Source: Balneolales bacterium (GTDB lineage Bacteria; Bacteroidota; Rhodothermia; Balneolales; Cyclonatronaceae). From it: DNA of 33,201 nucleotides. The position numbers were made by a program, and so were the translations under genes. This document shows, one piece after another, positions 13,241-16,833 of this stretch (within the stretch, counting starts at the first letter, position 1; every line of letters begins with the position of its first letter). Under the pieces are notes generated by a model. The model saw nothing but the letters and a program-made list of their open reading frames with translations. It was not told the origin of the DNA and did no database searches. Where the stretch lies: positions 1 through 33,201 of the forward strand of contig JAFIET010000042.1 in NCBI GenBank assembly GCA_020832405.1. Reading direction: 5' to 3'.

Positions 13241-13720
13241 ATGCGACCCGATCCTGAGCATAAAATTGATCCTAAAGCCATTCCGGCCTGGCGAATTTCC
13301 GGCGGACTTGGCTCCCTTTTTTGGTGGTTTATTCCGGTCATTTACGGTTTCATCGCGCTTGGCGGCGGTGTTGACCGCTGGATGATCCTGGCCGTAACGG
13401 CGCTTGTGGTGCTCAATACCGTGCTTCAGGCCACCATTATTCCGAAAATCCGCTGGCAGCGGTGGAGCTATCAGATCGATAAGCATGAGATTTATCTGAA
13501 GAGCGGCATTTTTGTGATCCGCCGCACCCTCATTCCGGTGAACCGCATTCAGCACGTGGATACGCGTCAGGGGCCGATTCTGCGCTCCTTCAGCCTTTCC
13601 ACGGTAACCATTACCACGGCCGCAACCACGCACGAAATTCCTGCCCTAAACGACGAAGTAGCCGATGAAGTCCGAAACCGAATCTCAGACCTTGCCCGAT
13701 CTGCCGATGAAGATGTCTGA
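13241..13720 (+). CDS. Bacterial PH-domain membrane protein (YdbS-like)
   Basis: This 159-aa protein has two adjacent membrane helices (about 25-70: GSLFWWFIPVIYGFIAL and MILAVTALVVLNTVL) followed by one bacterial PH2 (DUF304) domain (about 75-150). The domain carries the family core YQIDKHEIYLKSGIFVIRRTLIPVNRIQHVDTRQG. The frame is open back to 13160, but the ATG at 13241 starts just before the conserved part. The extra 27 residues look non-homologous and overlap the inverted repeat. It overlaps the next gene, another PH-domain protein, by 8-14 nt, so translational coupling is likely. Bacillus YdbS/YdbT form such a pair in the sigma-W regulon. The molecular function is unknown. Confidence 0.88.
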   Translation: MRPDPEHKIDPKAIPAWRISGGLGSLFWWFIPVIYGFIALGGGVDRWMILAVTALVVLNTVLQATIIPKIRWQRWSYQIDKHEIYLKSGIFVIRRTLIPVNRIQHVDTRQGPILRSFSLSTVTITTAATTHEIPALNDEVADEVRNRISDLARSADEDV

Positions 13721-15326
13721 GCCGAGGCGGCAGCATCCGGTTGCCGCCCTCACCAACGTGCTCAACACGCTTCGGGATCTGCTGGTGCCGCTCGTCATCA
13801 TCTTCTTTTTTGGCGGCGGCGGCGGAGGGAACGGCCTGTTCAGCAGCCCGTGGTACCTCGGCAGCTTCCTGATGTTTCTGCTCGTGCTGGGCGTTGCCCG
13901 ATGGATGCGCTTCACCTACCGCGTTGAGGACGACGAAATCCGCATCGAGTACGGCCTTTTTGTGCGCAAGCGCTCGTTCATTCCGCGGCACCGCATTCAG
14001 GTGATCGACATCAGCTCGGGCGTGCTGCAGCGGGCTTTCGGACTCGTGAGCCTGGAGGTGCAGACCGCAGGCGGCGGCGCTTCGGAGGCGAAAATAAACG
14101 CCCTCACGCTGGATGACGCCCTCTGGATCAAAGAAAACATGAGCCCGGAACACGAGGAAGAAGCCGGAAGCAACCCGGTAACCGGCGATGCTCACGGAAT
14201 TCCACCAAAAGAAAACGAGACCGGCGAAACCACGGAGGCCGCTGTCGGGCAACCGGCACAGCTTCGCAGGTCAGCGGCTGCGGCTACAACCGGGATGTCG
14301 GAGCCGGTTTACGCGCTGAGCTGGCGCAGGCTGCTTATTGCCGGCACCACCTCCGGCAGTTTCGGCATTGCGCTCTCCATTGTGGGCACCATTTTCGCGC
14401 AGATGAACACCGTAATCGACGACGATGCCGTAGTTGATTTTATTGAACTTGTATCTGCCAACGATACCGTGTTCTTCATTGGCGTTGCCGTGGCGCTGAT
14501 TTTTGTTGCCTGGGTGCTTTCAATTGTGGGCACCGTGCTTTCGTACGGTAATTTTGCGATTTACAAACGCAGGCGCGAAATGGTGATTTCACGCGGCATT
14601 CTGGAGAAAAAGCTCACTACGATTCCGTACAGCCGCATTCAGGGCATCCGGATTCAGGAGGGGGTGCTGCGGCAGCCGCTGGGCTTCTGCACGCTGTATG
14701 TGGACAGCGCCGGCTTTGGCGAACAGAGCGGGAAATCGACTACGCTGTTTCCGCTGCTGCGCCGCAGCGAGGCCGAGGAATTTATCCGGGTGATGGCGCC
14801 CGAATACGACCGGCAGCCCGAAACGGTGAGTCCGCCGCCGCGGGCCCTGCGCCGCTACATCATCCGCACGCTCATCCCCACCGGCATACTGATCGGCCTT
14901 TCGTACTGGCTGCTGCCGTTTGCGCATTTCATTCTGCCGATTATTCCGGTCGCCGTAGTGCTGGGCTACTACCGCTGGCGCGCCGCCGCTGCGGGAACCG
15001 ACACCGACACCCTGCTGATCCGCTACCGTAACCTGGCCAAAACCACGGTGCTGATGAAGCGCTACCGCATACAGTCGGCCACCGCCTGGGACAACTACTT
15101 CCAGCGCCGCCGCGGGCTGAAGAGCCTGACCGTGAACATTGCTTCGAGCGATACCGGCGCCTCGTTCAGCGCGCTCGACCTCGAAGCCGATGATGCCCTC
15201 GATTTTGTGGAGTGGGTTGAGCCGCACTACAACCGCAAGCAGGCTGCGGTTTCGGGTGAAACGGCGACTGAGACCGAGAAGAAAGAGGACCGGGATCAGG
15301 GCGGCTTTCTGGATATCGGGTATTGA
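13707..15326 (+). CDS. Triple bacterial PH-domain membrane protein (YdbT-like)
   Basis: This protein of about 539 aa has three PH2 (DUF304) repeats, each preceded by a pair of membrane helices. The cores are visible near residues 75-140 (IRIEYGLFVRKRSFIPRHRI), 285-355 (MVISRGILEKKLTTIPYSRI) and 425-500 (LLIRYRNLAKTTVLMKRYRI). A charged, Ala/Thr-rich linker separates the first and second units. A Gly6 run lies at the end of the first helix. Start choice is uncertain: ATG at 13665, 13707 or 13713 all overlap the ydbS-like gene, and the latter two give the short overlap typical of coupled genes. It is probably an inner-membrane partner of the preceding protein. No enzymatic motif is seen. Confidence 0.88.
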   Translation: MKMSEPRRQHPVAALTNVLNTLRDLLVPLVIIFFFGGGGGGNGLFSSPWYLGSFLMFLLVLGVARWMRFTYRVEDDEIRIEYGLFVRKRSFIPRHRIQVIDISSGVLQRAFGLVSLEVQTAGGGASEAKINALTLDDALWIKENMSPEHEEEAGSNPVTGDAHGIPPKENETGETTEAAVGQPAQLRRSAAAATTGMSEPVYALSWRRLLIAGTTSGSFGIALSIVGTIFAQMNTVIDDDAVVDFIELVSANDTVFFIGVAVALIFVAWVLSIVGTVLSYGNFAIYKRRREMVISRGILEKKLTTIPYSRIQGIRIQEGVLRQPLGFCTLYVDSAGFGEQSGKSTTLFPLLRRSEAEEFIRVMAPEYDRQPETVSPPPRALRRYIIRTLIPTGILIGLSYWLLPFAHFILPIIPVAVVLGYYRWRAAAAGTDTDTLLIRYRNLAKTTVLMKRYRIQSATAWDNYFQRRRGLKSLTVNIASSDTGASFSALDLEADDALDFVEWVEPHYNRKQAAVSGETATETEKKEDRDQGGFLDIGY

Positions 15327-15663
15327 GACAGCTGCCGGAAAACCCGCAAAACAGGCACACAGGCCAAAACGCAACGCTCCCGGCAAATCCGTCTTTGTTT
15401 TTTTTGGGGAGGGACTCCGTGCGCATCACGGTCAGCGGTGGCAGATCAGCGCTTCCAATCCAACGGAAAAGCCCGTGCTTTTTTGGATGCACCTTCAGCC
15501 ATGATTGCCCGAAAGCCAACGGAAAAAGCAAGGCGTTTGCCGCAGGTTTGGGGTTTCGGAACAAGAACGAAAGACCGTGATGCGCACGGGGTTTCCCCCA
15601 AAAAACAAATGCAGAACTGCCCTTAAAAATGGACTCCGGGCAGCGGCAGCTTTGCTTTTGCTG
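15327..15663. other. Intergenic region between convergent genes
   Basis: These 337 bp lie between the ends of the ydbT-like gene and the symporter gene. I see no credible protein gene. The stretch is almost filled by the inverted-repeat element described separately. No classical terminator hairpin followed by a T run was found, so the element itself may do this job for one or both genes. Confidence 0.5.
15397..15606. repeat. Non-coding element bounded by inverted repeats
   Basis: CCGTGCGCATCACGGTC at 15417-15433 is exactly repeated in inverse at 15573-15589. The symmetry extends outwards imperfectly through G/A-rich sequence to a T8 run (15398-15405) and an A6 run (15600-15605), giving ends of about 33 bp. 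Each arm contains its own hairpin (CCGTG-cgcat-CACGG). Inside are an 11-bp direct repeat CCAACGGAAAA (15460-15470, 15516-15526) and a CGGCAAA/TTTGCCG pair. It has no coding potential. It looks like a MITE-like or structured-RNA element of about 210 bp. Confidence 0.6.
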
Positions 15664-16833
15664 CTATGCTTCGGGGCCGGAATCCATCGAATCCACGATG
15701 AGCGCGATGGCGCCGTCGCCGGTTACGTTACAGGCCGTGCCGAAGCCGTCCTGCGCCATGTAGAGGGCGAACATGAGGCCGAGCTGCGCGTCGGTCATGC
15801 CGAGCACGGATGCCATCAGACCGATGGCCGCCACAACCGCGCCGCCGGGCACGCCGGGCGCGGCAATCATGGTGACCCCGAGCAGCAGGATGAACTGAAA
15901 GAACATGCCGAATTCCGGGGTGATGCCGTTCAGAATGAGCACAGCTACCGAGCAGGCCACAAGGGTGATGGTACTGCCGGCGAGGTGAATGGTGGCCGAT
16001 AGCGGCACGACAAACTCCGCGGTGCGGTCGCTTACACCGTTGCTCTTCACGCTCGCAAGCGTAACGGGGATGGTCGCGGCGCTCGACATGGTACCGAGCG
16101 CTGTGGTGTAGGCCGGCAGCATCTGCCTGATGGCTTTGAAGGGATTTACGCCGGTCCGAAGCGCAGCGATGGTGTATTGCGTGATGATCCAGAGCAGGTG
16201 CGTGCCGATAATGACGAGGAATACACGCGCGAAAACGGCCAGGGTCTGAAAGGCCTCACCGGAGGCGGCCATGTCCGCAAAGATACCGGCAATGTGCAGC
16301 GGCAGAAACGGGATGATGACTTTCGTGATCACCAGCACGATGATGCTCCGGAACTCATCCATCCAGTTAAAGAGCGCGGTGCGGTTTTCTTTTTGTTTGA
16401 GGTAGTTGATGCCCAGCCCGAAAACGAAAGCGGTAACAAGGGCGGTCATTACGCCGAAAATCGGCGGGGTGCTGATTTCCAGGAAAGGCGCGAGTCCGGA
16501 GGTGCTTTCGCCAACATCCCCGTGCTCGATGAAGCGCGGAATGATGCCCGTGCTCACAAAATAAGCCAGCACGCCCGCAAGTACCGTTGAGCCGTAGGCC
16601 AGCCCGGCCGTACCGGCCAGCAGCTTGCCGGCTTTTGCCCCAAGCTCCGCAATGCCCGCCGCGATGAAGCCAACGATAATCAGCGGCACCATGAACACCA
16701 GAAACTGCCCGAACAGATGCGTAAACGTGTACAGCAGCCGCCCGATCCACTCCGGGAGGAAGAGTCCGACAAGAATGCCGGCAATGATTCCGATGATGAG
16801 GCGGGGCAGCAGGCCAATGGTGAGGTTTTTCAT
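15664..16833 (-). CDS. Dicarboxylate/amino acid:cation symporter
   Basis: This 389-aa inner-membrane secondary transporter is of the DAACS (GltP/DctA) family and imports acidic amino acids or C4-dicarboxylates with Na+ or H+. The fold markers are clear: the HP1 serine-rich tip MSSAATIP (249-256), the TM7 segment TIHLAGST (281-288), the HP2 tip GVPGGAV (327-333) and the TM8 segment NVTGD (369-373). The TM7 motif, NMDGT in the classical glutamate transporters, lacks the Asp here, so coupling-ion or substrate details may differ. It is slightly shorter than GltP. It lies 148 nt downstream of the tricorn-like protease on the same strand, suggesting uptake of amino acids released by proteolysis, though this is inference. 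Confidence 0.88.
   Translation of the reverse strand: MKNLTIGLLPRLIIGIIAGILVGLFLPEWIGRLLYTFTHLFGQFLVFMVPLIIVGFIAAGIAELGAKAGKLLAGTAGLAYGSTVLAGVLAYFVSTGIIPRFIEHGDVGESTSGLAPFLEISTPPIFGVMTALVTAFVFGLGINYLKQKENRTALFNWMDEFRSIIVLVITKVIIPFLPLHIAGIFADMAASGEAFQTLAVFARVFLVIIGTHLLWIITQYTIAALRTGVNPFKAIRQMLPAYTTALGTMSSAATIPVTLASVKSNGVSDRTAEFVVPLSATIHLAGSTITLVACSVAVLILNGITPEFGMFFQFILLLGVTMIAAPGVPGGAVVAAIGLMASVLGMTDAQLGLMFALYMAQDGFGTACNVTGDGAIALIVDSMDSGPEA

What the first reader, a model, noticed from the sequence alone, without database searches (positions are those of the whole stretch)
15397..15606. 210-bp element with long imperfect terminal inverted repeats and internal hairpins
The perfect 17-bp inverted core (15417 and 15573), outward extension to T8/A6 ends, a hairpin within each arm and internal direct repeats are too ordered for chance. 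It fills the gap between convergent genes. It may be a MITE-like element, a double terminator or a structured RNA.
Basis: seen in the sequence. Interest (0 to 1): 0.5.

Follow-up and report, generated by a model that had tools for sequence, protein, structure and literature searches.

The report
Two copies of gene-end repeat family
The apparent 210-base palindrome is two back-to-back copies of a short DNA repeat scattered about a hundred times through this genome, mostly just past the ends of genes; in a sister species a jumping gene, probably RNA-guided, uses the same repeat as its landing site.

Summary
The inverted repeat is real, but it is not one element. Window 15400-15484 and 15523-15605 are two members of a dispersed extragenic repeat of about 84 nt (about 120 nt with an upstream block). 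The model gives 95 matches in this draft genome and at least 150 in one sister species (about 330 by extrapolation); the other 126 of 128 genomes searched in the order gave none. Each unit's T-run end mostly faces a gene's 3' end (41 of 49 here, 68 of 98 in the sister), so convergent genes give inverted pairs. In the sister the two flanking genes lie about 100 kb apart: the transporter keeps a unit, split by an IS110-family insertion; the PH-domain gene has none. The unit lacks covarying stems and terminal inverted repeats, and does not replace terminators. The RAYT transposase is absent here. In the sister all six copies of one IS110 element sit inside units at the conserved CATCA core, and its leader is predicted to fold with a loop matching that target. 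Best reading: a lineage-specific REP-like repeat, copied by unknown means, with its core constrained after insertion. Host function is unproven.

The parts
15400..15484 (+). Unit A of the repeat, given on the strand that reads T-run first (sense strand of the PH-domain gene); the models R1/R2 are built on the opposite strand and report it as '-'
   Evidence: R1 70.2 bits, E 4.3e-21; 75 nt after the stop of 13665-15326 +
15523..15605 (-). Unit B of the repeat, given on the strand that reads T-run first (sense strand of the symporter gene); reported as '+' by R1/R2
   Evidence: R1 82.3 bits, E 6.8e-25; 59 nt after the stop of 15664-16833 -
15424..15428 (+). CATCA core of unit A, among the most conserved stretches of the family and the point where an IS110 element is inserted in sister-species units
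   Evidence: column frequencies; IS junctions
15578..15582 (-). CATCA core of unit B
   Evidence: as for unit A
15485..15522 (.). Spacer between the two units; over the 8 close inverted pairs of the first 51 copies the gap between matched stretches runs from 41 (this one) to 196 nt
15617..15643 (-). CTGCCC...GGGCAG hairpin between the symporter stop codon and unit B, a possible terminator of that gene; not followed directly by a T-run
   Evidence: read
13665..15326 (+). PH-domain (bPH_2) protein gene whose 3' end faces unit A
   Evidence: Pfam PF03703, E 3.6e-42
15664..16833 (-). Sodium:dicarboxylate symporter gene whose 3' end faces unit B
   Evidence: Pfam PF00375, E 3.8e-89; the sister-species ortholog also has a unit, interrupted by an IS110-family element

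Best explanation
The feature is two separate members of a lineage-specific, dispersed, oriented extragenic repeat. One unit reads, on the strand of the gene it follows, T6-7 GGGGGAAACTCCGTGnnCATCAcggtctttcGtG - about 12 variable nt - CCCAAAnC - about 10 variable nt - CCCTTGCTTTTT, in a part of the copies with a block like CCTGAACCCGGC 33-38 nt further upstream. Shown: units lie almost entirely between genes, their T-run end mostly faces a gene's 3' end, and convergent genes that each have one give the inverted pair seen here. Shown: in the sister lineage copies have multiplied since the split (subfamilies found there and not here), and the conserved columns stay conserved at orthologous sites where the variable columns are randomised. 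Inferred: units spread by a copying process acting in trans (no responsible enzyme was found among the few families searched) that favours, or whose products survive mainly at, the DNA just past transcription end; once in place they work like REP-class repeats, as DNA-level sites that something recognises and that tolerate insertions. Shown in the sister species: one thing that acts on them is an IS110-family element, inserted in all six copies at CATCA, whose leader RNA is predicted to carry a matching guide loop.
For: 76 BLAST matches in the own genome (a unit can match twice, so this is not a copy count); 51 aligned copies of one unit; model R1: 95 matches in G000, 150 in G005 (150 was the number of candidates scored, so a lower bound), 0 in G001-G004 (150 candidates scored each); model R2: 2 of 128 genomes of the order (35 candidates scored each, stricter filters). 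The T-run side is a gene 3' end for 37 of 45 units with both neighbours called (6 of 51 at stretch edges), and with new gene calls for 41 of 49 in G000 and 68 of 98 in G005, against 342 of 706 gap sides (48%) in G005 gaps of 150 nt or more; 1 of 54 and 2 of 101 units overlap an ORF by more than 40 nt. 8 of 8 close inverted pairs have the T-runs outward, 7 of 8 of them between convergent genes. Ortholog test on 114 gene pairs: unit at both 9, G000 only 4, G005 only 5, neither 96. Convergent partners are separated in the sister: the L020 genes lie about 120 kb apart and each keeps a unit; the window's two genes lie about 100 kb apart. Nine orthologous unit pairs: 89% identity in conserved columns, 36% in variable columns, the latter as with shuffled partners (35%). 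G005 subfamilies: 9, 11 and 35 of 95 units against 0, 0 and 1 of 53 in G000. IS110 junctions 6 of 6 on the left, 5 of 6 on the right, read by eye.
Against: No agent that copies the units was found: RAYT (Y1) is absent from G000, reverse transcriptase from both species; few other enzyme families were searched. The orientation bias is weaker in G005 (68 of 98) than in G000 (41 of 49). One of the 8 inverted pairs (L045) is not between convergent genes. In the sister the PH-domain gene has no unit, so only one of the window's two sites is shared. Alignments of occupied against unoccupied orthologous sites were too diverged to define element ends or a target duplication. Orthologous units are no more alike than random cross-species pairs, which also fits repeated insertion at the same gene ends. 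No expression data were available.
Confidence: 0.75

Rival explanations
1. A host-maintained DNA site at gene ends: each unit is bound by a sequence-specific protein that acts in a polar way just past the terminator, for example stopping read-through transcription or insulating convergent genes. The family arose by copying in the ancestor of the two species and is now kept by selection.
For: Sequence, not pairing, is conserved. Conservation is uneven, with CATCA at 99% per column beside spacers at about 35-60%. Units persist at orthologous ends where variable columns are saturated. G000 scores are sharply two-peaked: in 400 kb, 29 units at 60 bits or more, 1 at 40-50, 1 at 10-20. Fixed orientation.
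Against: Not detected in four congeners. 8 or 9 of 114 ends differ between two species at about 87% protein identity (one of the 9 is an interrupted unit). 30 of 98 G005 units have their T-run facing a gene start. The 400 kb of G000 were blocks chosen around known units; the unselected 800 kb of G005 do show a low-score tail.
Confidence: 0.3
2. A purely selfish non-autonomous element that inserts into T-tracts downstream of terminators and does nothing for the host.
For: T5-7 at both ends of the unit, position after gene ends and often past a terminator, subfamily expansion in G005.
Against: Few decayed copies in the G000 blocks (blocks chosen around units); conserved columns held at orthologous sites while variable columns are randomised; no parent element or enzyme found.
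Confidence: 0.35
3. A structured RNA or 3'-UTR element transcribed with the upstream gene.
For: Strong fold of the pair; a possible TTTTGGG/CCCAAA outer stem with an inner hairpin, 88% and 84% of cells paired, above the slid controls.
Against: Breaks far outnumber compensations: 116 against 8 and 107 against 1. No Rfam match at gathering or relaxed threshold. The strong fold belongs to the pair, which is an accident of convergent genes.
Confidence: 0.1
4. A terminator, one unit per gene.
For: Position and orientation after genes; a hairpin ends within 3 nt of the unit T-run in 31 of 146 units.
Against: Genes with units have separate terminators in 14 of 35 (G000) and 30 of 58 (G005), against 33 of 85 and 37 of 140 convergent genes without units (threshold -8 kcal/mol). 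The hairpin tested before the unit's final T-run pairs in only 59% of cells.
Confidence: 0.1
5. A single 210-bp MITE with long terminal inverted repeats.
For: Inverted arms at 83%.
Against: 35 of the first 51 copies are not in a close inverted pair; pair gaps range from 41 to 196 nt; the genes of a pair are separated in the sister.
Confidence: 0.03

Closest known systems
REP / BIME repetitive extragenic palindromes (with RAYT transposases)
   Same: High-copy, short, extragenic, sometimes in inverted pairs, and targets of insertion sequences (REPs as IS targets: abstract of PMC1525189).
   Different: About 84-120 nt, without a palindrome kept by compensatory change. No Y1/RAYT in G000, and Y1 presence does not track the family: G005 5, G001 3, G002 3 matches (one below the cut-off), G003 1, G000 0, G004 0. 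Around one Y1 gene of G005 a different CCCGAAGGG-type repeat is seen, next to a truncated unit (L141).
IS621 (IS110 family, bridge RNA) inserting into E. coli REP elements
   Same: The G005 element has a DEDD transposase domain (PF01548), a 281-nt leader predicted to fold into a stem with an internal loop carrying GAGCATCAC and GCCAGG, and an apparent CT core at the insertion point (the core is my inference). The target-binding-loop layout and CT core are described in PMC11208160 (passages seen); that IS621 targets REP is recalled.
   Different: The repeat itself is not a REP by the tests made, and the guide match (9 nt, reached in 3.2% of shuffled leaders) is moderate evidence on its own.
MITEs
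   Same: Short, non-coding, dispersed, with subfamilies.
   Different: No terminal inverted repeat in a unit, no demonstrated target duplication, no parent element found.
Group IIC introns and other elements that insert after terminator hairpins (recalled)
   Same: Oriented placement after gene ends.
   Different: No reverse transcriptase match in G000 or G005 and far too short.

Membership tests
REP/REPIN with RAYT | Short extragenic repeat in many copies | tested here: met
   95 and at least 150 matches; 1 of 54 and 2 of 101 units overlap an ORF by more than 40 nt
REP/REPIN with RAYT | Conserved palindromic stem in each unit | tested here: not met
   Inner hairpin cells broken 116, compensated 8, of 740; 84% paired
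REP/REPIN with RAYT | Cognate Y1 (RAYT) transposase in the genome | tested here: not met
   PF01797: 0 in G000, while 5 of 14 control genomes ring
MITE | Terminal inverted repeats of one element | tested here: not met
   Single units lack them; the inverted arms are two units
MITE | Target-site duplication | tested here: inconclusive
   T-runs at both ends of the unit; orthologous sites too diverged to align as empty sites
Structured RNA family | Compensatory base changes or an Rfam match | tested here: not met
Intrinsic terminator | GC hairpin followed directly by a T-run, taking the place of other terminators | tested here: not met
IS110 family (G005 element IS_A) | DEDD transposase domain | tested here: met
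   PF01548 93.9 bits in six copies
IS110 family (G005 element IS_A) | Bridge RNA with a target-binding loop matching its target | tested here: inconclusive
   GAGCATCAC in the leader of all six copies; fold predicted on one of them; no expression or recombination test
Retroelement or group II intron derivative | Reverse transcriptase available in the genome | tested here: not met
   PF00078: 0 in G000 and G005

The most novel reading that the evidence does not exclude
The units are a new class of polar DNA element marking the ends of genes: bound by a dedicated protein, kept by selection at many gene ends, and renewed by exchange of half-units at the CATCA core, the same point where a probably RNA-guided IS110 recombinase acts. 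In G005, 10 units share near-identical right parts joined to left parts at background similarity, with the step exactly at CATCA, which would suit exchange by an IS110-type recombinase. Against it: that is one cluster, other close pairs are alike over the whole unit, and left and right similarity are partly linked over all G005 units (correlation 0.32, shuffled 0.00 with sd 0.05).
Probability: 0.15. Interest if true: 0.8.

Novelty: new variant of a known kind. Interest (0 to 1): 0.5.

Why it matters
It adds a high-copy, gene-end-oriented repeat family, without a kept palindrome and without RAYT in this genome, to the known bacterial extragenic repeats. It was detected in only two sister species, so its birth and spread can be dated and traced. 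It also offers a natural case of an IS110 element whose predicted guide matches a genomic repeat that is not a REP, and a set of units whose halves may have been exchanged at the recombinase target, which can be tested directly.

Tried and rejected
Rfam at gathering and relaxed thresholds: nothing. RAYT as the mover: absent from G000. Reverse transcriptase as the mover: no match in G000 and G005. Wider distribution: an exact core pattern in genome contigs gave one hit, in a Spirochaetales MAG; only 32 model positions of the core match (24.5 bits), and I take it as chance; viral contigs gave none. Mutual information: the top pairs are mostly neighbouring or unpaired positions. Terminator replacement: not supported (the control stretch of 110 nt is shorter than the stretch searched for some unit genes, which favours the unit genes). 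Vertical descent of unit sequence: orthologous units are no more alike than random cross-species pairs (63.5% against 65.1%; partner shuffling), so saturation, replacement and re-insertion cannot be told apart. Half-unit copying rests on one G005 cluster of 10 units, is absent from G000, and other close G005 pairs are alike over the whole unit. In the profile scan of the IS_A flanks (E up to 10, model built from G000 units) only L170, L168 and L174 right parts and the joined sites of L170 and L168 were reported, no left part; the rest is read by eye, and the left part beside the symporter ortholog is reported in another scan (E 0.00055). Of the ten IS110 matches of G005 one (L175) was not examined, and the right end of L178 was an estimate. 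A weak 15.5-bit match at window 14178-14214 is treated as chance. Literature: four searches listed no description of this family; this is a limited open-access library.

Full report
Observation. The inverted arrangement is present as described: perfect 17-bp arms at 15417-15433 and 15573-15589, 36-nt arms at 83%, fold z-score -6.7. Searching the own genome (G000, 3.96 Mb, 188 contigs; the window is contig C144) with 15380-15620 gave 76 matches. The matches cover either half of the query, because each half is a copy of one repeat unit in opposite orientation.

The unit. I fetched 37 stretches holding matches and extracted 51 units including the two in the window. Aligned, they show an 81-84-nt unit. 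On the strand of the gene it follows, over 148 units from two species (53 from G000, 95 from G005), the columns read TTTTTTTGGGGGAAACTCCGTGnnCATCA, then a moderately conserved CGGTCTTTCGTG, a variable spacer, CCCAAAnC, a second variable stretch and CCCTTGCTTTTT. CATCA is at 99% per column. A further block resembling CCTGAACCCGGC lies upstream of the T-run in part of the copies: CCTGA occurs in the stretch 18-62 nt upstream in 15 of 51 and 33 of 95 units, against 2.0 and 4.2 in shuffled stretches; 37 of 54 occurrences lie at 33-38 nt; motif likelihood 366 against 84 in shuffled flanks. The window units are 15400-15484 and 15523-15605; neither has a clear CCTGA block.

Placement. With gene calls by codon usage, the T-run end faces a gene's 3' end in 37 of 45 units, 6 of 51 being at edges. 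In a second pass this was 41 of 49 in G000 and 68 of 98 in the sister species G005, against 342 of 706 gap sides (48%) in G005. The median distance from stop codon to T-run is 88 and 86 nt. Units are intergenic: 1 of 54 and 2 of 101 overlap an ORF by more than 40 nt. All 8 close inverted pairs among the first 51 units have the T-runs outward, and 7 of 8 lie between convergent genes, L045 being the exception. This is as expected if each unit belongs to its own gene.

Distribution. Model R1 gives 95 matches in G000 and 150 in G005, where 150 was the number of candidates scored, and none in four other genomes of the same genus. The mixed model R2 finds 2 of 128 genomes of the order, with 35 candidates scored per genome under stricter filters. 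Two unselected 400-kb blocks of G005 hold 61 units, which extrapolates to about 330. G000 and G005 are the closest pair: the window's symporter is 91% identical in G005 but 74-75% in G002 and G004, and the best match in G001 and G003 is only 27-28%.

Two units, two genes. The symporter and PH-domain genes adjoin in G000 but lie about 100 kb apart in G005. Beyond the symporter stop G005 has the left part of a unit, interrupted by an IS110-family element; beyond the PH-domain gene no unit was found in 500 nt. Another convergent pair of G000, in locus L020, is likewise split in G005, about 120 kb apart, and there each gene keeps a unit. Of 114 ortholog pairs, 9 have units in both species, 4 only in G000 (one is the symporter, whose G005 unit is interrupted), 5 only in G005, 96 in neither.

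Constraint and turnover. Nine orthologous unit pairs are no more alike than random cross-species pairs (63.5% against 65.1%). Split by column, conserved columns are 89% identical (92% over all cross pairs) and variable ones 36%, against 35% with shuffled partners. So the variable positions are saturated, or units have been replaced, while the core is held. Within G000 the scores are two-peaked: in 400 kb chosen around known units, 29 at 60 bits or more, 1 at 40-50, 1 at 10-20 and 4 below 10, with nothing above 10 in the reversed control. In 800 unselected kb of G005 there is a low tail of 16 matches between 10 and 50 bits, against 1 in the reversed control. G005 has its own subfamilies: three end-module types in 9, 11 and 35 of 95 units, and in 0, 0 and 1 of 53 in G000. 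In 20 pairs among 10 G005 units the part from CATCA rightwards is at least 94% identical while the left part is at background (0.81 against 0.78), with the step exactly at CATCA. This is one cluster, so it is suggestive only. G000 shows no such pairs, other close G005 pairs are alike over the whole unit, and left and right similarity are partly linked over all G005 units (correlation 0.32; -0.05 in G000).

What it is not. Stems are not kept by compensation: inner hairpin 116 broken against 8 compensated cells of 740, outer stem 107 against 1 of 885; both pair more often than slid versions, as conserved sequence would. Terminators are as common or commoner upstream of units than at convergent genes without units (14 of 35 against 33 of 85 in G000; 30 of 58 against 37 of 140 in G005). 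RAYT is absent from G000, and its presence elsewhere in the genus does not track the units. No reverse transcriptase matched in either species.

An IS110 element homes on the unit. G005 has 10 matches to PF01548, G002 one, G000 none. Six in G005 are near-identical copies of one element, 97-99%. All six have a unit's left part ending in CATCAC at the left junction, and five of six continue into the second part of a unit at the right end; the sixth has lost that end (read by eye, the profile scan recognised only some of the parts). The 281-nt leader folds as a stem with an internal loop carrying GAGCATCAC on one strand and GCCAGG on the other (predicted on one copy; the 9-mer is in all six). This is the layout described for the target-binding loop of bridge RNAs (PMC11208160, passages), and it fits a target CATCA-CT-GGC, the core being my inference. 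A 9-nt match is reached in 3.2% of shuffled leaders, so the guide assignment rests on the fold and the junctions together. Three copies of another IS110 type gave no unit match at their flanks; one right end was an estimate. REPs as insertion-sequence targets are known (PMC1525189, abstract).

Verdict. The feature is real and is explained as two members of a lineage-specific REP-like extragenic repeat that is neither a REP nor a MITE by the tests made. Whether the host uses it is open; how it is copied is unknown.

Noticed in passing
L168, L170-L174 (G005 positions 58927, 229447, 1717390, 1794118, 2875142, 2961839): Six near-identical IS110-family elements, all inserted inside units of the repeat at the same point and orientation, with a leader that is predicted to fold like a bridge RNA carrying a matching guide.
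   Followed up: yes
G004:C66:5387-5478 and G002:C153:2065-2155: A different repeat of about 92 nt lies downstream of the symporter ortholog in two congeners in which the unit was not detected; 3 matches in G004 and 8 in G002.
   Followed up: partly
L141:12100-13250 (G005 about 1.712-1.713 Mb): A Y1 (RAYT-type) transposase gene is surrounded by short CCCGAAGGG/CCCCTTCGGGG repeats, a REP-like family distinct from the unit; one of these repeats lies next to the broken end of a truncated unit.
   Followed up: partly
G005 units such as L133:2155, L149:15333, L130:6720, L131:14688: Units with 96-100% identical right halves but left halves at background similarity; the step lies at the CATCA core.
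   Followed up: partly
window 14178-14214: A weak 15.5-bit match to the unit core inside the coding sequence of the PH-domain gene, probably chance.
   Followed up: no
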